This document shows positions 3,407 to 12,609 of a stretch of DNA of 53,807 nucleotides, in pieces. Numbering within the stretch: position 1 is the stretch's first letter; the number at the start of each line of letters is the position of its first letter. A program made the position numbers and the translations under genes. The notes beneath the pieces were generated by a model. The model made no database searches, had not been told where the DNA came from, and saw nothing but the letters and a program-made list of their open reading frames with translations. This stretch comes from Candidatus Staskawiczbacteria bacterium RIFCSPHIGHO2_02_FULL_43_16 (GTDB lineage Bacteria; Patescibacteriota; Minisyncoccia; Minisyncoccales; Staskawiczbacteraceae): positions 1-53,807 of the forward strand of contig MHOU01000008.1 of the NCBI GenBank assembly GCA_001821935.1. The letters run 5' to 3'.

Positions 3407-4870
3407 ATGCTAACTAAAACCGATTTTATGAATTACCTGGAATGCCCCATGTATTTGTGGCTTTCCAAAAACCGGCCGGAATTGTTGCCGGAAGATGACG
3501 CCGAAAAAGAGCGGATTTTGGCGGCGGGGCGCGAGGTGGACGAATTTGCCAAAAAGTTATTTCCCAAAGCAATAGAAATCAAAGGCTATAACGAAATTGG
3601 TTTTGAACAGACCCAAAAAGCCCTGGCCCAAAATCCCAAGGCGCTGTTTCAGCCCACTGCCGTGGCAGGCGAATTGGCAGCCCGGGCCGATATTTTGGTT
3701 GCCGGCCAAACGCCCGGCACCTTTGACATCAATGAAGTAAAAATGGCCACCAAGGTAAAAAAGGAATATCTGTATGACTTGGGATTCCAAAAAATCTGTT
3801 TTGAAGGCGCGGGCATACAAATCGGCCGATTAAAGTTGGTGCATATTAACGGCAACTATGTGCGCCACGGCGAAATTAACCCCAGCCAGCTGTTTGACAT
3901 TGAAGATATTACGGAAGATGTTAACGAAAAACTGCCCCAGATACAAGATGAAATTCAGCGCGCGCTAAAAATCATTAATCTAAAAGAAGAGCCCAGTGTT
4001 ACTTTGATTAATTCTTGCGCCAACCCCAAATACTGCGATTATATAGAACATTATTCTAAAATATCCGAAGATATTTTTCCGTTAGCCGAAAACATTCAAA
4101 TGCCGCACCTGTTGCACTTGTTGGAGCGTGAAATTTTAGACCACAAAAAAGTGCCCGCCACGCTGTTGGGAAAAATCGGGTTTGAACCGCCGGTGGAATT
4201 TACCAATATAAATACCGAAGGCATAAAACGCGAATTGGCAAAACTGCAATACCCGCTTTACTTTTTTGATTATGAAACTTACAACTGTGCTATTCCGCCG
4301 TTTGACGGCACCACGCCTTATCAGCAAATTCCGTTTCAATATTCACTGCATATCCAAGACGCGCCGGGTGCCCAGCTGCGCCATGCTGATTTTTTAGCCC
4401 AGACCTTTGAAAACCCCATTCCCGGTTTGTTGGAACATTTGCAAAAAGACATGGGCTCCAAAGGCAGCGTGATTGTTTGGTTCGCGCCGTTTGAAACGGG
4501 GCGCAATAAAGAAATGGCTCTGGGAAATCCGGAATTTGCCCAACTGTTGAATTCCATCAATGAACGGATGTTTGACTTGATGGTCATTTTTAAATTTAAA
4601 AATCAGCTGTACACCAAAAGCGAATTTAAAAAACTAGCTTCGTTAAAAGTTATTTTGCCGGTGCTGTGCCCGGAGCTTTCGTACAAAGATTTGGCTATTC
4701 AAGAAGGGGGGACAGCTTCCGCCAGTTGGCCTATTATGACTAACCCGCAAACTCCGCCCAGCGAGCGCGAACGGCTCAAACATGACATGGTTGAATACTG
4801 CAAGCGCGACACCTTGGCCATGGCGGCGATATTGGAGAGGGTGCGAGCAGACCTTGACATAGTTGTGTAA
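3407..4870 (+). CDS. DUF2779-like protein: PD-(D/E)XK nuclease plus RNase H-like exonuclease domain
   Basis: ARADILVA...FDINEVKMATKVKKEY (PD-(D/E)XK core) and FFDYETYN...HDMVEYCKRDTLAM (DEDD-like). Confidence 0.7.
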   Translation: MLTKTDFMNYLECPMYLWLSKNRPELLPEDDAEKERILAAGREVDEFAKKLFPKAIEIKGYNEIGFEQTQKALAQNPKALFQPTAVAGELAARADILVAGQTPGTFDINEVKMATKVKKEYLYDLGFQKICFEGAGIQIGRLKLVHINGNYVRHGEINPSQLFDIEDITEDVNEKLPQIQDEIQRALKIINLKEEPSVTLINSCANPKYCDYIEHYSKISEDIFPLAENIQMPHLLHLLEREILDHKKVPATLLGKIGFEPPVEFTNINTEGIKRELAKLQYPLYFFDYETYNCAIPPFDGTTPYQQIPFQYSLHIQDAPGAQLRHADFLAQTFENPIPGLLEHLQKDMGSKGSVIVWFAPFETGRNKEMALGNPEFAQLLNSINERMFDLMVIFKFKNQLYTKSEFKKLASLKVILPVLCPELSYKDLAIQEGGTASASWPIMTNPQTPPSERERLKHDMVEYCKRDTLAMAAILERVRADLDIVV

Positions 4871-4882
4871 ATAATACATAAT
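4854..4882 (+). promoter_or_regulatory. Sigma-70-like promoter for the CRISPR effector
   Basis: TTGACA (4854-4859), 17-nt spacer, CATAAT (4877-4882); SD AAGGAG at 4922-4927 before GTG 4935. Confidence 0.7.
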
Positions 4883-4934
4883 AGGAGACGTTTACAGTAC
4901 CTTACACTATCAACATTTCACAAGGAGTTTTTCC

Positions 4935-6383
4935 GTGAAAAACACCAAAGAAGAAAAGTGGATGCAGACGTATTGCTTCGATCTGACAGATGAGGAGTTC
5001 GGCGCGGAAAATATCCGCCTGGCGACGCACATCAGCGATAGCCTGGTGCCACTTTTTAATGAAGTTCTTCTGCAAGTTCTCAAGGGTGACGAAACCATCA
5101 AGGAGTTAAAGCAGGAGGTGAAACTACGTGGCAGAGCGCTCAAGCAAAAGGCTAAGGAGGCGCAGATGGAAGATTTGTGGGACAGGGAAAACAACGAGAT
5201 TGACGACGAAGAGTGGCTGGAAAGGGGATATGACCAAGAGGTTATCAAAGAGCATCGTGACTACGTTGACGAAATAGCAAAGCTATATTCGGAAAACAAA
5301 GTCACGGCCTTTGATCACAACTACCACTACGCCCAAGAAAATCTAGAGGCAATTGGTTGCACCGCACCGTACGTTAATATCTCTGCTGGACTTCGCCGTG
5401 GCGCCATTAAAAACTGCCACGGGGCAGTGGATTCATGGCGTAAGCATTTGGCGACGGGCGATTACAAGTCCAAGCCGCCCGGTCAGCAAGAGGTTGGCAA
5501 GTTTTATATGCTTCGGTGCGAACCTGGGTGCGCTGTCACCAAAGATCGTAAAAACGTGCGCATCAGTCTTGGAGATCGCAAGTCCAGCCCGGTGTTTGAG
5601 CTGCCTGGGCTTGATAATTCCAAAAACAAACCCCTGCACATGCTTTTGCGTTCTGATGCGAAGGTGAAAAGTTTTACTTTGAGCCGCCGTTCAGCTCGCA
5701 ACCCTGACAAAAAAGAGTCGGACTTGCAAAAGCCCGGCGTGTGGCGCATTTCAATTAATTTCGAATTGCCTTTGCCAGAGAAAAAGCCCGCGACTGAATA
5801 CAATACGGTGGCGTTGGTTATCGGGTCAAACTACCTTGGGGTGGCATTACATGATTCGGAGAGAAACTTTCCTTTGAATCTGCCATTGCCTCACAAGCAC
5901 TGGTTCCCGATTATTGGCGACATTGAGGGTCGGGCAAACGTTCCTTGGCGGAAGAAAGGGAGTAAAAAGTGGCGGCGAAAAATGTTTGGCGTCCAGAAAA
6001 AGCATTCTGGCGGCCGGCAGGCCTGCTACAGATACATGGCTCGCCAGCAAAAACAAGGCGAGTACGAAACCATTGCCGATCACCTGATTGGCTGTGGTGT
6101 TCACTTTGTGGTGAGCAAACCTTCAATCAACCATCCAAAAGGTTTGGCTGATGCTTCTGCTCCTGACCGCGGAGGTGATACCGGTCCCAACCGCATCATC
6201 TCTAGCACCGGTGTTAATTCGCTCGTGTTAAAGCTCAAGCAGAAAGTGAAGGAGTTTGGCGGGTCGGTCACAGAAATGGAAGCGCCACCGTTGCCCGAAC
6301 GATTTCGTTTTTGGGACAGCGGCCCCAAAAAAGTGATCGTTGCCCAGTTGTTGAGAAATCAATATCTGGCGCAAAAAAAATAA
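4935..6383 (+). CDS. Compact TnpB/Cas12-like (type V-like) CRISPR effector with apparently inactivated RuvC motifs
   Basis: N-terminal helical region, YVNISAGLRRGAIKNCHGAVDSWRKHL and KPGVWRISINFELP, then RuvC-I-like VALVIGSNYLGVALHD, basic KKGSKKWRRKM, RuvC-II-like HFVVSKPSIN, C-terminal NSLVLKLKQKVKEFGGSVTEME...GPKKVIVAQLLRNQYL; followed by cas1 and CRISPR array. Confidence 0.7.
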   Translation: MKNTKEEKWMQTYCFDLTDEEFGAENIRLATHISDSLVPLFNEVLLQVLKGDETIKELKQEVKLRGRALKQKAKEAQMEDLWDRENNEIDDEEWLERGYDQEVIKEHRDYVDEIAKLYSENKVTAFDHNYHYAQENLEAIGCTAPYVNISAGLRRGAIKNCHGAVDSWRKHLATGDYKSKPPGQQEVGKFYMLRCEPGCAVTKDRKNVRISLGDRKSSPVFELPGLDNSKNKPLHMLLRSDAKVKSFTLSRRSARNPDKKESDLQKPGVWRISINFELPLPEKKPATEYNTVALVIGSNYLGVALHDSERNFPLNLPLPHKHWFPIIGDIEGRANVPWRKKGSKKWRRKMFGVQKKHSGGRQACYRYMARQQKQGEYETIADHLIGCGVHFVVSKPSINHPKGLADASAPDRGGDTGPNRIISSTGVNSLVLKLKQKVKEFGGSVTEMEAPPLPERFRFWDSGPKKVIVAQLLRNQYLAQKK

Positions 6384-6388
6384 CTCAG

Positions 6389-6425
6389 GCCGTCCCGGTA
6401 CACCTGTATCGCGGACGGCATTTTT
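6389..6425 (+). terminator. Intrinsic terminator after effector
   Basis: GCCGTCC...GGACGGC followed by ATTTTT. Confidence 0.7.
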
Positions 6426-6439
6426 GTTACACTATAACT

Positions 6440-7171
6440 ATGAATGCCATTTGGTTAACTCATATTTCCAATTACCAAAAAACCGCACATGCTTTTGCTT
6501 CGGCTGAAAAGATTATGAATGTAAAAAACCAGCGGCGTGAATTACTCATGCAAAGGTATGGCACTCTGTTACCCAAAATACGTTTGGCAGATTATCATAA
6601 TAACCAAGAAATTATGTTAGCCGAAGGCCGCACCGCCCAAATATTTTGGAAAAAGTTTTCTTTGCTGTTGCCAAGATGGTGCAGCTTTCGTTCAAGATAC
6701 CCAGGGTCAGATGATCTGGTTAATCGATTACTAGATTTGGGCTACCATCAAATTACTAATGCTATCAGGAAAATCCTTGAAAAGTATGATATTTCGTCAG
6801 CGCTAGGAATTTTGCATGTTGCTCGCAAAACAACCAGCGCTCCACTGGCGTATGATTTGGTAGAAATGTTCCGGGCGGATATTGTGGAAGTGGAAGTCTT
6901 AAGATTTTTGCGCATGAAAAAACAGCCATTGGAAGAGCTGCGCCAAAAAGATATTGCTATTTTTTTATACAGAATTAATCACCGCCTTAATCATAGGTAT
7001 TTTATTAAATCGTTCAAGCAATGCCAAACCTACCGCTATTATATGGAATTACAAATCTTAAAATTTATCAAAGCGGTAAACCATAAAGAAGTTTTTTCTC
7101 CAATTTATTTACCTATTCGTCATGATACAAGATGTACTAAGGGAGTATGTTTTCATGACAAAAAAACTTGA
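6440..7171 (+). CDS. cas1: Short Cas1 integrase (alpha-helical catalytic domain only)
   Basis: EKIMNVKNQRRELL, AEGRTAQIFWKKFS (catalytic Glu), NRLLDLGYHQITNAIRKILEKYDISSALGILHVARKTTSAPLAYDLVEMFRADIVEVEV (His, Asp). Start trimmed from 6311 to ATG 6440, 6 nt after TGTTACACT extended -10. Confidence 0.8.
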   Translation: MNAIWLTHISNYQKTAHAFASAEKIMNVKNQRRELLMQRYGTLLPKIRLADYHNNQEIMLAEGRTAQIFWKKFSLLLPRWCSFRSRYPGSDDLVNRLLDLGYHQITNAIRKILEKYDISSALGILHVARKTTSAPLAYDLVEMFRADIVEVEVLRFLRMKKQPLEELRQKDIAIFLYRINHRLNHRYFIKSFKQCQTYRYYMELQILKFIKAVNHKEVFSPIYLPIRHDTRCTKGVCFHDKKT

Positions 7172-7197
7172 CAAATAAGGCGATGCCATGCTAAGCT
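7168..7197 (+). promoter_or_regulatory. Putative promoter for CRISPR leader RNA / array
   Basis: TTGACA 7168-7173, 18-nt spacer, TAAGCT 7192-7197 with upstream TG; overlaps the cas1 stop codon. Confidence 0.45.
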
Positions 7198-7203
7198 CAA
7201 AAT

Positions 7204-7428
7204 AGCACATCATAGGAATATGAGAAAAGTACCCCTGTTCTTGGCAGTTCAGGAAGTATTTTTCTCACCAACTAGTGGTAGTCAGGATGATTACCTTCAA
7301 TCAATTGACAGGATGTATGCGCTGTAGCAGCGCCGCCTGGTCTTGAGCGGACCGGGATGAGGCCTTGTAAAATCTCCTTGCTTTCCTGCAAGGTTGAGGA
7401 AAAAAACACCCCCAGCTCATTTTTTCTT
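7204..7428 (+). ncRNA. Structured CRISPR leader RNA, candidate tracrRNA/scoutRNA-like molecule
   Basis: Hairpins: GAGAAAAGTAC/GTATTTTTCTC (7222-7266), TGATT/AATCA (7288-7303), GCGCTG-TAG-CAGCGC (7319-7333), CCTGGTC/GACCGGG (7336-7356), CCTTGC/GCAAGG (7376-7393). Confidence 0.5.
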
Positions 7429-7955
7429 GTAGACGGGCCCTTGCCGACGACGGAGGGGGTTGGTTACTGAAGGGCAACTAGCCACAAATGTCCCATCTTG
7501 TAGACGGGCCCTTGCCGACGACGGAGGGGGTTGGTTACGATAACCGGTTCTGGGAATGAAATTTTTTCCAAGTAGACGGGCCCTTGCCGACGACGGAGGG
7601 GGTTGGTTACGAAAAACAGAACTTTTAGAGCCTCTCTGGTCTTGTAGACGGGCCCTTGCCGACGACGGAGGGGGTTGGTTACGGCAATAGACATGACAAA
7701 AAAAGCGATGATAAGTAGACGGGCCCTTGCCGACGACGGAGGGGGTTGGTTACTGGTCCACGAATGGGCCCTTTCTTAAACTTCGTAGACGGGCCCTTGC
7801 CGACGACGGAGGGGGTTGGTTACAAATAACGGCGACAAGAAAGTATTTTTAGCGGCGTAGACGGGCCCTTGCCGACGAAGACGGGGGTTGGCTACAACAC
7901 GGCCTTATCAATTTTCTTGGGCAAATGTAGACGGGCCCTTGCCGACGACGGAGGG
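7429..7955 (+). CRISPR. CRISPR array: 39-nt repeat GTAGACGGGCCCTTGCCGACGACGGAGGGGGTTGGTTAC, 8 units, 7 spacers of 31-33 nt
   Basis: Repeats start at 7429, 7500, 7572, 7644, 7715, 7785 (identical), 7857 (degenerate) and 7927 (truncated at 29 nt); spacers unique. Confidence 0.97.
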
Positions 7956-7980
7956 TCAAAACAAAAAACAAAAAACTGCC

Positions 7981-8008
7981 AAAGAGCTTCATTGGGGGCT
8001 CTTTTTTC
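7981..8008 (+). terminator. Intrinsic terminator after CRISPR array
   Basis: AAAGAGC-loop-GCTCTTT followed by TTT. Confidence 0.65.
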
Positions 8009-8138
8009 TTGTAGAACTTTTGTGGTAGAATGGTTTTATGAAAAAAAAGTGGCGATTTTTATAGAGGGGCCACAAAGATATTTCAAAACATATTTCAAAA
8101 CATTTGACAGTCATTTTTTAGAAGCATATAATGAAAAT

Positions 8139-8871: not shown

Positions 8872-9594
8872 ATGAAACAAAAAGTCGCGATTTTTGATGT
8901 TGATGGCACGATTTTCCGATCCAGTTTATTAATAGAAGTGGTACGGGTTTTAATTGAAAATAAAATATTTCCGCAGAAAGTAAGGTTCACCTATGAAAAA
9001 AGTTACCAGGATTGGTTGGATAGAAAAGGCAGTTATGAAACCTATATTATGGATGTGGTTAAGGCTTTTGAGGGGAATTTGAAAATATTGGCCCACGATG
9101 ATTTTATGAGAGCGGTAAAACAGGTCATTGCTTTCCATAAAAACCGGACCTATGTTTACACGCGGGGCTTGATTGCCGATTTAAAAAAGAAAGGCTATTT
9201 TATTTTAGCCATTTCTCATTCGCCCAAAGAATTACTGGATGAGTTTTGTGCGCAGTGGGGGTTTGATAAGGTGTATGGCCGGGTGTATGAAGTGGGCAAG
9301 AACGGGAAATTTACCGGTGAAACATTATATAAAGAAGAAATTTCCGACAAGGCAAAAATTTTAAAGCGTTTTATTGAAAAGGCCACCGCCGTTGGCGGGG
9401 TCCCGTCCGAAGGCGGGAAAGGGTTGAGTTTGGCGGATTCCTATGGTGTGGGGGATTCGGAAAGTGATATTAAGTTTTTGACGTTTGTGGAAAACCCGAT
9501 TTGTTTTAACCCTAATGGTAAGCTGTATGAGCACGCCAAAAAGCATGGGTGGCAAATAGTCGTTGAGCGCAAAGATGTAATATATAATTTATAA
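8872..9594 (+). CDS. HAD-superfamily hydrolase (SerB-like)
   Basis: KVAIFDVDGTIFRSS...AISHSPKELL...GVGDSESDIKFL. Confidence 0.8.
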   Translation: MKQKVAIFDVDGTIFRSSLLIEVVRVLIENKIFPQKVRFTYEKSYQDWLDRKGSYETYIMDVVKAFEGNLKILAHDDFMRAVKQVIAFHKNRTYVYTRGLIADLKKKGYFILAISHSPKELLDEFCAQWGFDKVYGRVYEVGKNGKFTGETLYKEEISDKAKILKRFIEKATAVGGVPSEGGKGLSLADSYGVGDSESDIKFLTFVENPICFNPNGKLYEHAKKHGWQIVVERKDVIYNL

Positions 9595-9731
9595 ATCCAA
9601 AATACAAAATTACAAATCCCAAATAATACCAAAATCCAAACTTTTTAAATCCAAAACACTTTTTGAATTTTAAATTTCGAAGATTGTAATTTATTTGGAG
9701 CTTGTAATTTTGAATTTGTAATTTAACTTTC

Positions 9732-10442
9732 ATGGACTTAAAAGGAAAAACCATCATCATTACTGGGGCGGCGCGGATTGGGAAGGAAGTGGCAAAACAA
9801 CTTAAAGAAAAAGGGGCGAATTTGGTGATAGCGTATTTCAGCGACCCGGCTGAGGCCGGGCCCCATGGCGCGGGTGTGCAGGCCGATGTTTCAAAAAAAG
9901 AAGATGTGGCACGGGTGGTGGCATTTGCCAAAGAAACATTTGGCCGAGTGGACGGGCTGGTGCATATGGCGGCCATTTATGAAAAATCGCCTTGGGAAGC
10001 GCTGGACGAAAAGCATTGGGACAAAAATATGAATGTCATGGCCAAAAGCACGTTTTTATTTGGCAAGATTTTGGGGGATGAACTTTTGAAAAATGATGGG
10101 GAAGTAAAGGGGAAGATGATTTTCTTTGCTGATTGGTCGGTGCTGGCTAGCCCATACAAAGATTACTTAGCTTATAATGCGGCCAAAAGCGCCGTGGTGG
10201 GGTTGACCAAGTCGTTTGCCAAGGAATTGGCTCCCGGAGTTTTGGTCAATGCCATTGCGCCCGGCCCCATGTTGCGGCCGCTGGATTTGACCGATGAAGA
10301 AAATGAAGAAGCCATGGCCGGCACGCCGCTTGCCCGCTGGGGCGGGGCGGATGAAATTGCTAAAGGGGTTTGCTATTTAATGGATGCCGATTTTGTGACG
10401 GGGCAAGTGCTGACGATTGACGGAGGGAGGAGTATTGCTTGA
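9732..10442 (+). CDS. SDR-family oxidoreductase
   Basis: KTIIITGAARIGKEVA...YNAAKSAVVGLTKSFAKELAPGVLVNAIAPGP. Confidence 0.9.
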   Translation: MDLKGKTIIITGAARIGKEVAKQLKEKGANLVIAYFSDPAEAGPHGAGVQADVSKKEDVARVVAFAKETFGRVDGLVHMAAIYEKSPWEALDEKHWDKNMNVMAKSTFLFGKILGDELLKNDGEVKGKMIFFADWSVLASPYKDYLAYNAAKSAVVGLTKSFAKELAPGVLVNAIAPGPMLRPLDLTDEENEEAMAGTPLARWGGADEIAKGVCYLMDADFVTGQVLTIDGGRSIA

Positions 10443-10607
10443 CGGATTTATTAAGATATTGCATAGCTATTGACACGCAAAACATAGCATGCTAACATTA
10501 CCTTACTTAGTAGAAGCGGGGTCGAGTTTCTCACGAGGTAAAATTTAAAAGTAACAACAGGTGGCAGGCGGCGGGTTAATCCCCAAAACCTAACACCTAA
10601 AATCTAG

Positions 10608-10805
10608 ATGACAGGTACAATCAAAACTCTGACAGAAAAAGGTTTTGGATTTATCGCCCGCGAAGGCGAAGCCAAGGATCTTTTCTTCCATTCAAATGAT
10701 TTGAATGGCGTAACCTTCACTGAATTGAAAGTTGGCGATGTAGTCAACTTCGATGTTGAAGAAGGTCCAAAAGGACCTAGCGCAAAAAACGTAACACGCG
10801 CTTAG
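10608..10805 (+). CDS. Cold-shock-domain protein
   Basis: MTGTIKTLTEKGFGFIAREGEAKDLFFHSNDL. Confidence 0.9.
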   Translation: MTGTIKTLTEKGFGFIAREGEAKDLFFHSNDLNGVTFTELKVGDVVNFDVEEGPKGPSAKNVTRA

Positions 10806-10813
10806 TTAGTAAT

Positions 10814-10844
10814 AAAAGCCGCGCCCTGTCGGGCGCGGCTTTTA
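10814..10844 (+). terminator. Intrinsic terminator
   Basis: AAAAGCCGCGCCC-TGTC-GGGCGCGGCTTTT. Confidence 0.75.
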
Positions 10845-10887
10845 TGTTGTTGCAAAAAACCGCCACCAGTGAGATAATGTATATATT

Positions 10888-11664
10888 ATGGCCATACAGC
10901 GCAGAAGGTCAAATTTATATACACCGGGATTAGATGCTCCTTTCAATGTCAGCAGGTCAAAAATCGCGCTCTTCTTGGAATGCCCACAATGTTTTTGGCT
11001 GGACCGGCGGCTGGGGATTTCCCGGCCAGACATGCCCGGCTGGTCGCTTAACAGTGCGGTGGACACCTTGCTAAAAAACGAATTTGATTTACTGCGTGAA
11101 AAAAAAGAACCGCACCGGCTGATGCTGTTTCACCGCATAGACGCTGTTCCATTCAATCACCCCGATTTCCACATTTGGCGGGATGATCATGGTAAGCGCA
11201 TCGGGGCTTCTGTCTTACACAAAAAAACTAATTTGAATATTTGTGGTATCATTGATGATATCTGGCAAAACACGCAAACCGGGCAGCTGCACATTGTAGA
11301 TTACAAATCCACCAGCACCGATTACCGAATTTCCCTGGACGGCAAGTACAAAGATGGCTATAAAAAACAGATGGAAGTATACCAGTGGATTTTCAAACAG
11401 ATGGGCTTTGAGGTTGCGCCCGCCGGTTATTTCTTGTTTGCCAATGCCGTAAAAAACCGGCCGGGTTTTCATGGCAAATTGGAATTTGAGAGTTCTATTT
11501 TAGAGCACGTTGGCGATGATTTATGGATTGAACCTGTTTTGCTGGATATTAAAAAATCCCTTGATAGCGATCACATTCCCGAACCGGGGCCGCAATGTCA
11601 GCATTGCGCTTACCGCAAATTAATCAACCAAGCAAAATTAAAAACACAAATCAGTTTAATTTAA
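10888..11664 (+). CDS. PD-(D/E)XK nuclease (Cas4/RecB-like) with Cys pairs
   Basis: CPQCFWLDRR...GIIDDIWQNTQTGQLHIVDYKSTST...QMEVYQWI...CQHCAYRK. Confidence 0.7.
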   Translation: MAIQRRRSNLYTPGLDAPFNVSRSKIALFLECPQCFWLDRRLGISRPDMPGWSLNSAVDTLLKNEFDLLREKKEPHRLMLFHRIDAVPFNHPDFHIWRDDHGKRIGASVLHKKTNLNICGIIDDIWQNTQTGQLHIVDYKSTSTDYRISLDGKYKDGYKKQMEVYQWIFKQMGFEVAPAGYFLFANAVKNRPGFHGKLEFESSILEHVGDDLWIEPVLLDIKKSLDSDHIPEPGPQCQHCAYRKLINQAKLKTQISLI

Positions 11665-11668
11665 AAAC

Positions 11669-12064
11669 ATGGATGAAAAGTTAAAGTGGGGGATAATAAC
11701 CATTATCATAATTTCAGTCATTGCGGGCGGGTTTTTCGTTCTGCAAAACATCCAGCATGCCAAAGCGGTAAAGCTTCAACAGTTTGCCACGTGCTTGAAA
11801 GATAGTGGCGCGGTTTTTTACGGGGCGTTTTGGTGTTCACATTGCCAGAACCAAAAAGCCATGTTTAATACCTTATTTGAAAGCGCTGTGGATAAACTGC
11901 CTTACATTGAATGCTCAACGCCTGATACCAACGGTCAGCTGGAAATTTGCAAAACAGAAAAAATAGACACGTATCCAACCTGGAAATTCGCCGACGGTTC
12001 GGTTGAAACCGGAGAAGTTTCTTTGCAAAAACTTTCACAGAAAACTAATTGTCCGTTGCCATAG
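11669..12064 (+). CDS. Membrane-anchored thioredoxin-fold protein
   Basis: VFYGAFWCSHCQNQKAMF...TYPTWKFADG. Confidence 0.75.
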   Translation: MDEKLKWGIITIIIISVIAGGFFVLQNIQHAKAVKLQQFATCLKDSGAVFYGAFWCSHCQNQKAMFNTLFESAVDKLPYIECSTPDTNGQLEICKTEKIDTYPTWKFADGSVETGEVSLQKLSQKTNCPLP

Positions 12065-12066
12065 TT

Positions 12067-12609
12067 ATGGATTTACTGTTTATCGTCAATAAAAAACTTG
12101 CTATTGAAACGGTACTGGCCCAGCTGTTTATTGTTTGGGCTTTGGTGTATCTGTTTTTTTTGCGTAATAAGCACCGTACGATAACAGATTTTTTAGGAAA
12201 ATATGGAATTGCGTTTGCGTTTTTGATTTCTTTTACGGCAACCGCCGGCAGTTTATTTTATTCAAACGTGGCGGGGTATGCGCCATGTTACCTGTGCTGG
12301 TGGCAGAGGATTTTCATGTATCCACTGGTGATTATCACCGGTTTGGCTTTGTTAAAACGCGACCGGCGCGCCGTAGATTATATTCTTTCGCTTGCGGTGA
12401 TTGGGTTCGGTATTTCCCTTTGGCACAATTTCATTTACTACTACAATGGAGGGTTAAGTGTGTTTTGTGATTTAGGCGCCGGCCAGGTTTCTTGCGTGAA
12501 GCGCTATGTGTTTGAATTGGGTTATGTGACCATTCCCATGATGGCGCTGACGGCGTTTGCCCTGATTATTACCCTTACCATTTTTGTAAAATTAAAAGAT
12601 AAATCATAA
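12067..12609 (+). CDS. DsbB/BdbC-family disulfide bond formation protein
   Basis: 4 TM, PCYLCWWQRIFMYP and second Cys pair FCDLGAGQVSC. Confidence 0.8.
   Translation: MDLLFIVNKKLAIETVLAQLFIVWALVYLFFLRNKHRTITDFLGKYGIAFAFLISFTATAGSLFYSNVAGYAPCYLCWWQRIFMYPLVIITGLALLKRDRRAVDYILSLAVIGFGISLWHNFIYYYNGGLSVFCDLGAGQVSCVKRYVFELGYVTIPMMALTAFALIITLTIFVKLKDKS

What the first reader, a model, noticed from the sequence alone, without database searches (positions are those of the whole stretch)
4854..8008. Minimal two-protein CRISPR-Cas locus of type V-like architecture: compact effector, short Cas1, structured leader RNA, array
Seen: strong promoter, 482-aa effector ORF, terminator, cas1 with its own extended -10, a second promoter, about 225 nt of hairpin-rich leader, eight-unit CRISPR array and terminator, all on the + strand. 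No Cas2 was found anywhere in the window and there is no Cas4 next to the array. Known: Cas12c (V-C) and Cas12d (V-D) loci are Cas1-only, but their effectors are much larger and their spacers short (about 17-19 nt). The combination of a sub-500-aa effector, Cas1 without Cas2, 39-nt repeats and 31-33-nt spacers does not match a subtype I can name. Inference: a new type V subtype or an early TnpB-to-Cas12 intermediate.
Basis: partly seen in the sequence, partly recalled or inferred. Interest (0 to 1): 0.95.

Follow-up and report, generated by a model that had tools for sequence, protein, structure and literature searches.

The report
Nuclease-dead mini-CRISPR with self-matching spacers
A tiny bacterium of the Patescibacteria carries a stripped-down CRISPR system whose Cas12-like protein has lost its DNA-cutting residues, whose spacer-inserting enzyme works without its usual partner gene, and whose stored sequences mostly match the cell's own essential genes, so it most likely binds DNA without cutting it.

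Summary
The locus is real: effector (4935-6383), short cas1 (6440-7171), structured RNA, eight-repeat CRISPR array (7429-7956). It is type V, but neither a nuclease nor an early TnpB intermediate.

The effector family is already catalogued as V-F "Cas12_x1" (PADLOC), yet RuvC-I Asp and RuvC-II Glu are replaced (V and S here; also replaced in 31%-identical relatives). Strong purifying selection (dN/dS about 0.1) says the dead protein is used. Cas1 lacks its N-terminal domain but keeps its catalytic residues; no Cas2 was found in the genome. The RNA before the array is conserved with covariation and has a hairpin loop that pairs with the repeat's 3' end, as in Cas12f tracrRNA.

An independent locus in another Patescibacteria family (different RuvC-altered V-F effector, short Cas1) has four of four self-matching spacers, again including eno.

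Best reading: Cas1-only adaptation samples self DNA, tolerated because the effector binds without cutting. Deliberate self-regulation is not excluded. New variant of a known kind.

The parts
4854..4882 (+). promoter of the effector gene (TTGACA-17-CATAAT)
   Evidence: 11 of 12 consensus matches; by sequence only
4935..6383 (+). RuvC-dead compact Cas12 effector, 482 aa, GTG start with AAGGAG upstream
   Evidence: PADLOC Cas12_x1 (V-F) 1.2e-42 over residues 2-480; RuvC-I 'LVIGSN' (D to V) and RuvC-II 'FVVSKPSI' (E to S) by alignment; dN/dS about 0.08 against the 76%-identical G001 copy
6389..6427 (+). terminator-like inverted repeat GCCGTCC...GGACGGC followed by ATTTTTG
   Evidence: direct reading of the sequence; loop too long for the scan
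6440..7171 (+). cas1, 243 aa, lacks the N-terminal domain; catalytic E62, H126, D139/E142 kept
   Evidence: PF01867 3e-20; alignment with full-length Cas1 of G407 shows about 85 N-terminal residues missing; conserved in G009 and G010
7168..7197 (+). candidate promoter of the RNA and array (TTGACA-18-TAAGCT), overlapping the cas1 stop
   Evidence: direct reading; TTGACA at the equivalent place in L006 and L007
7315..7428 (+). tracrRNA-like RNA core, directly upstream of repeat 1; the transcript may begin near 7200
   Evidence: conserved in three loci; 5 of 22 pairs changed on both sides, 97% of cells paired
7319..7333 (+). hairpin GCGC-TGTAGCA-GCGC; loop GTAGC pairs with the 3' end of the repeat (GTTAC, one G-U pair; GGCTAC in repeat 7 and in relatives)
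   Evidence: equivalent to Stem 3 / AR:R 1 of Cas12f sgRNA (PMC8053092)
7336..7356 (+). covarying hairpin whose loop TGAGC pairs with GCTCA at 7415-7419 (pseudoknot)
   Evidence: five double changes in the stem; the loop pairing itself is invariant
7429..7956 (+). CRISPR array: eight 39-nt repeats (last two degenerate or truncated), seven 31-33-nt spacers
7468..7499 (+). spacer 1, 32/32 match to own eno (G000:C10:75583-75614, antisense)
7539..7571 (+). spacer 2, 32/33 match to own fusA (G000:C10:15303-15335, antisense)
7611..7643 (+). spacer 3, no match found
7683..7714 (+). spacer 4, 25-26/32 match to an orthologous membrane-protein gene in G003 and G010; none in own genome
7754..7784 (+). 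spacer 5, 31/31 match to own rpsS (G000:C10:21429-21459, antisense)
7824..7856 (+). spacer 6, 31/33 match to own rplD (G000:C10:19942-19974, sense)
7896..7926 (+). spacer 7, glyA: 29/31 in G003, 28/31 in G005 and G012, 24/31 in own genome (antisense)
7981..8012 (+). terminator after the array
3407..4870 (+). DUF2779 protein with Cas4-like N-terminal domain; possible accessory nuclease, association unproven
   Evidence: adjacent in three of three loci with flank, in two divergent allelic contexts, but also in CRISPR-free genomes

Best explanation
A minimal, chromosomal type V CRISPR system derived from the V-F (Cas12f-like) lineage. A short Cas1 acting without Cas2 inserts pieces of about 30-32 bp at the leader side of the array. 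The array is transcribed with the adjacent tracrRNA-like RNA; a hairpin loop of that RNA pairs with the repeat's 3' end to make a Cas12f-type guide. The effector, having lost two of the three RuvC catalytic acids, binds guide-matched DNA and blocks transcription or replication instead of cutting. Because it cannot cut, spacers taken from the cell's own (or close kin's) chromosome are not lethal and make up most of the array. Shown: anatomy, loss of catalytic residues, purifying selection, RNA covariation, self matches in two independent loci. Inferred: DNA binding, silencing, Cas1-only integration, and that the self spacers are tolerated by-products of non-selective acquisition rather than purposeful regulators.
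For: Effector in the V-F profile family with TnpB descent visible in the G009 copy (HTH_OrfB_IS605 1.2e-7, transposase phrog_506 2e-16). RuvC-I Asp and RuvC-II Glu replaced in all four copies. dN about 0.18 against saturated dS about 2. Catalytic Cas1 residues kept, N-terminal domain absent; no Cas2 genome-wide. Guide-RNA pairings, matching Stem 3 / AR:R 1 of Cas12f. Self matches: window spacers 1, 2, 5, 6 and all four spacers of G177, against 0.4% of spacers in general (PMC6990116). Oldest spacer (7) fits relatives better than the own gene and the newest fits perfectly, as expected of acquisition over time. Precedent: a CPR locus with Cas1 and a fragmented CasY holds 12 self-targeting spacers among 22 (PMC6509639). 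Binding-only immunity is established for Cas12m (PMC11013384) and stated for V-C in PMC12669027.
Against: No phage or plasmid target was found for any spacer, so a defence role rests on analogy. The single spacers of G009 and G010 do not match their own genomes. Targets lean towards highly expressed genes (eno twice, fusA, rpsS, rplD, glyA, dnaK), which random sampling would not give, although slow evolution of such genes also favours their recognition. No model of the effector fold could be obtained (pLDDT 37).
Confidence: 0.58

Rival explanations
1. A dedicated self-regulator: the array is a set of guides with which the dead effector dials down the cell's own housekeeping genes (translation, glycolysis), for example when the episymbiont leaves its host cell.
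For: Most spacers in two independent multi-spacer arrays match own or genus chromosomal genes, many of them housekeeping; eno is hit in both; dead effector under strong purifying selection. [quoted passage not shown]
Against: Target sites lie anywhere in genes (base 7 of rpsS, 7% of eno, 57% of fusA), both strands occur, no shared T-rich PAM, spacer 7 no longer matches its own gene well (24/31), and spacers are not shared between G000, G009 and G010.
Confidence: 0.2
2. A decaying, non-functional V-F locus whose nuclease died and whose array is a fossil.
For: G009 and G010 arrays have only two repeats; the G010 cas1 shows two frameshifts in poly-A runs and an IS sits upstream; last two repeats of the window array degenerate.
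Against: dN/dS near 0.1 between effectors that are all RuvC-dead, covarying RNA, intact Cas1 active site, six identical repeats, and exact spacer matches implying recent acquisition. The G010 frameshifts and Ns may be assembly errors.
Confidence: 0.12
3. An active novel type V nuclease subtype or an early TnpB-to-Cas12 intermediate.
For: Small size, TnpB-like N-terminus in the G009 relative, RNA adjoining repeat 1 as in an omegaRNA.
Against: RuvC-I Asp and RuvC-II Glu replaced in all four homologues; family already under V-F in PADLOC; self spacers would be lethal with an active nuclease.
Confidence: 0.05
4. Spacers are copied from abundant mRNA through one of the host's reverse transcriptases acting in trans.
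For: Targets are mostly highly expressed genes; six RVT_1 genes in the genome; first spacer nucleotide often untemplated, 6 of 9 mismatched there against 9 of 278 elsewhere, p = 5e-7.
Against: No RT at the locus; spacer orientation mixed; the RTs are unlinked to cas1 and have the size of diversity-generating-retroelement RTs (own knowledge).
Confidence: 0.05

Closest known systems
Type V-F (Cas12f/Cas14), in particular PADLOC families Cas12_x1 (PDLC01225) and PDLC01689
   Same: compact TnpB-derived effector, profile match over the full length, tracrRNA-like RNA whose hairpin loop pairs with the repeat 3' end
   Different: two RuvC catalytic acids lost, no TNB zinc ribbon, Cas1 without Cas2, self-matching spacers; the structurally characterised Cas12f is a nuclease with a D-E-D triad (PMC8053092)
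Type V-M (Cas12m)
   Same: compact effector with altered RuvC site; proposed action by binding and blocking
   Different: no specific sequence relation found; Cas12m is guided by a single crRNA (PMC11013384), here a tracrRNA-like RNA is predicted
Types V-C and V-D (Cas12c, Cas12d/CasY)
   Same: Cas1 without Cas2, separate small structured RNA, V-D found in Patescibacteria; V-C silences without cutting
   Different: much larger effectors (CasY 1,153-1,287 aa, PMC6509639); repeats and spacers about half the usual length, here 39 and 31-33 nt
Fragmented CasY locus of Roizmanbacteria (PMC6509639)
   Same: Patescibacteria, Cas1 and array next to a presumably cleavage-defective effector, 12 of 22 spacers self-targeting
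   Different: recent fragmentation of a large nuclease by two mutations; here the inactive state is old, shared by four species and under selection
TldR (nuclease-dead TnpB-like repressors)
   Same: RuvC-dead TnpB-derived RNA-guided binders that regulate genes
   Different: no cas1 and no array (own knowledge); here array plus adaptation gene

Membership tests
Type V-F (Cas12f) | effector matches V-F profiles | tested here: met
   PDLC01225 1.2e-42, full length; G009 and G010 copies 542 and 614 bits
Type V-F (Cas12f) | RuvC catalytic triad D-E-D | tested here: not met
   RuvC-I D to V (A in G009/G010), RuvC-II E to S (T in G009/G010)
Type V-F (Cas12f) | TNB zinc ribbon (PF07282) at the C-terminus | tested here: not met
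   no Pfam match in window, G001, G009 or G010 proteins and no Cys pairs at the C-terminus; weakly present in G446
Type V-F (Cas12f) | tracrRNA with a stem-loop whose loop pairs with the crRNA repeat (AR:R 1) | tested here: met
   predicted from sequence in three loci; weaker parallel in G177; no experiment
Type V-F (Cas12f) | RNA-guided DNA cleavage with a 5' T-rich PAM | not testable with these tools
   no assay possible; no T-rich PAM beside the self targets
Types V-C / V-D | Cas1 without Cas2 | tested here: met
Types V-C / V-D | large effector of the Cas12c or Cas12d family | tested here: not met
   482 aa, best profile V-F
Types V-C / V-D | short repeats and spacers (about 25 and 17-19 nt) | tested here: not met
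   39-nt repeats, 31-33-nt spacers
Type V-M (Cas12m) | sequence relation to Cas12m | tested here: inconclusive
   no Cas12m model named among PADLOC hits at E up to 10; no direct profile comparison made
Type V-M (Cas12m) | silencing by binding without cleavage | not testable with these tools
   inferred from lost catalytic residues only

The most novel reading that the evidence does not exclude
Patescibacteria have turned Cas1-only, nuclease-dead V-F systems into a heritable self-regulation device: new guides against the cell's own highly expressed genes are acquired into the array and used as a natural, updatable CRISPRi, in several independent lineages.
Probability: 0.18. Interest if true: 0.93.

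Novelty: new variant of a known kind. Interest (0 to 1): 0.74.

Why it matters
It joins three open questions in one small, reconstitutable locus: whether self-targeting spacers are accidents or regulators, whether Cas1 alone can integrate normal-length spacers (the V-C mini-integrase prefers 17-19 bp, own knowledge of Wright 2019), and what a CRISPR system does once its nuclease is gone but selection persists. The near-total self-origin of spacers in two unrelated RuvC-altered loci, against 0.4% in general, is a strong and testable pattern.

Tried and rejected
No match in Rfam, PDB by profile, IMG/VR, or phage and plasmid collections. Viral origin of spacers 3 and 4: no exact match. DUF2779 as a dedicated cas gene: not accepted, because 11 of 13 genomes of the genus carry it, mostly without CRISPR, though its adjacency in two allelic contexts is noted. 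A PAM was looked for and not found; a T at the first position 5' of the matched stretch in seven of nine sites is a weak, post hoc lead. Escape mutations in own glyA: own gene is 71-74% like its relatives at the protospacer and 75-77% overall, so no special signal. Decay of the locus rejected on dN/dS.
Full report
Observation. A promoter (4854-4882) precedes a 482-codon GTG-start gene (4935-6383), followed by an inverted repeat with a T run, a 243-codon cas1 (6440-7171), a structured intergenic stretch and an array of eight 39-nt repeats with seven spacers of 31-33 nt, ended by a terminator. Six repeats are identical, the seventh is degenerate and the eighth truncated, so the array has grown from the cas1 side.

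Host and distribution. The window is contig C8 of a 740-kb, 95%-complete genome; its closest homologue is in a MAG named Candidatus Staskawiczbacteria (76% identity). The effector family occurs in 4 of 13 genomes of the genus and in none of the other 234 genomes of the order. The PADLOC profile of the family hits only the window's own genome in a 380-genome sample of the phylum. In G009 and G010 (31-32% identity) the order effector, cas1, RNA, mini-array is the same; in G001 the contig ends inside cas1.

Effector. PADLOC's Cas12_x1 model, filed under V-F, matches the window protein over its full length (1.2e-42) and the G009 and G010 proteins with 542 and 614 bits, so the family was already in a public library. 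The G009 protein still shows the TnpB N-terminus (PF12323, 1.2e-7) and a phage transposase profile. A phmmer alignment of the G009 protein to a solved TnpB-like designed nuclease (9yyg) places its RuvC-I 'gvDlg' opposite 'flAig'; the window has 'lVig' there. At RuvC-II, read by eye against the TnpB pattern, the usual Glu is Ser in the window and Ala or Thr in the relatives. dN/dS is about 0.08 (window-G001) and 0.09 (G009-G010), although dS is near saturation. The protein is therefore dead as a RuvC nuclease, on sequence grounds, but under selection. The fold could not be modelled.

Adaptation. Cas1 aligns to the C-terminal domain of normal Cas1, lacking about 85 N-terminal residues relative to a 330-aa Cas1 of the same phylum, with E62, H126, D139 and E142 kept. 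No other Cas1 and no Cas2 above cut-off was found in the genome. V-C and V-D systems also lack Cas2, but their repeats and spacers are about half the usual size (PMC13034035); this one has normal lengths.

Guide RNA. The core 7315-7467 aligns across three loci. A hairpin GCGC-TGTAGCM-GCGC exposes GTAGC(C), complementary to the repeat's 3' end (GGCTAC in G009 and G010, GGTTAC in the window with a G-U pair). A second hairpin has five pairs changed on both sides among three sequences, and its invariant loop TGAGC pairs with invariant GCTCA. With this structure 97% of cells pair, against 30-53% when slid. Three sequences are few, and the structure was read from them, so this is support rather than proof. 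Cas12f sgRNA has the same arrangement: a 5-bp Stem 3 whose loop forms the AR:R 1 duplex with the repeat (PMC8053092).

Spacers. A search of the whole genome with the array found own-chromosome matches for spacer 1 (eno, 32/32), spacer 2 (fusA, 32/33), spacer 5 (rpsS, 31/31) and spacer 6 (rplD, 31/33); spacer 7 matches glyA of relatives at 28-29/31 and its own glyA at 24/31; spacer 4 matches a membrane-protein gene of relatives at 25-26/32; spacer 3 has no match. Gene names are from reading the translated ORFs. None matches phages or plasmids. The targets are ordinary chromosomal genes, not prophage.

An independent case. A Cas1 profile search of the phylum led to G177, of another family: a 242-aa Cas1 beside a 602-aa effector of another V-F family (PDLC01689, 708 bits) whose RuvC-I motif reads GIHFG (D to H), and five repeats with four spacers. 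All four spacers match elsewhere in its own genome: a sugar epimerase, dnaK, a glycosyltransferase and eno. G446 has a 739-aa effector with GIAFG (D to A) and a 242-aa Cas1, but its contig ends before any array. Self-targeting spacers are otherwise 0.4% of all spacers (Stern 2010, cited in PMC6990116).

Details of the spacers. In the nine best matches the first spacer nucleotide is mismatched in six, against 9 of 278 elsewhere (p = 5e-7), so it is probably not templated by the protospacer. No PAM is evident. If the effector needs a PAM, the self sites may not be bound at all.

Mechanism. The committed reading is an RNA-guided DNA binder with Cas1-only adaptation that samples self DNA, tolerated because nothing is cut. 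The closest published parallel is a Roizmanbacteria locus with a fragmented CasY and 12 self-targeting spacers among 22; its authors note that Patescibacteria may lack RecBCD, which elsewhere curbs self acquisition, and they suggest a possible regulatory role (PMC6509639). The bias towards highly expressed genes (seven of ten identified targets) and eno in both arrays keep self-regulation and RNA-derived acquisition open. Slow evolution of such genes is a confounder, since old spacers remain recognisable only there. The expectation of about 8% used for such genes is my own estimate, not a measurement.

Neighbourhood. In the closed, CRISPR-free genome G005 and in G012 the genes flanking the locus, DUF2779 and a HAD phosphatase, lie close together with a single ORF between them, so the CRISPR locus is an insertion between 4870 and 8872. 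In G001 and G010 the locus sits beside a divergent DUF2779 allele (35-37% identity). DUF2779 has a Cas4-like N-terminal domain and could supply prespacer trimming, but it is a common gene of the genus.

Limits. Nearly all genomes are metagenome assemblies; only two arrays with more than one spacer were available; the two single spacers of G009 and G010 do not match their own genomes; nothing has been shown by experiment; and the literature library lacks most subscription papers, so the variant may have been pictured in published V-F surveys that I could not read.

Noticed in passing
window 3407-4870; L091 2743-4302; L007 10288-11817: DUF2779 protein with Cas4-like N-terminal domain, single copy per genome in two divergent alleles, next to the CRISPR locus in all three loci that have flanking sequence (in G010 with an IS in between).
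   Followed up: partly
L069 (G177:C38:3000-22000), 9461-12480: Independent Cas1-only locus with a RuvC-I D-to-H V-F effector of 602 aa; all four spacers match the own chromosome.
   Followed up: yes
L070 315-3342 (G446:C67): Third Cas1-only locus: 739-aa effector with RuvC-I D-to-A and a TNB-like zinc ribbon; contig ends before the array.
   Followed up: partly
G000: C12:82410, C2:103589, C12:112936, C2:831, C11:70883, C6:5870: Six reverse transcriptase genes (open frames 339-373 aa) in a 740-kb genome, one about 1 kb from the glyA protospacer region; possibly diversity-generating retroelements.
   Followed up: no
L007 7160-7860 (cas1) and upstream of 9067: G010 cas1 is broken by two frameshifts in poly-A runs and an IS transposase lies between DUF2779 and the effector; assembly error or decay.
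   Followed up: partly
L006 4840-5560: Inverted-repeat element (TTTGAATTACGAAATGC) between cas1 and the guide RNA and again after the array in G009; a related end lies upstream of the G010 effector.
   Followed up: no
first nucleotide of spacers in window 7429-7956 and L069 9461-9760: The first base of the spacers usually does not match the genomic source, suggesting an untemplated or repeat-derived base at the junction.
   Followed up: partly
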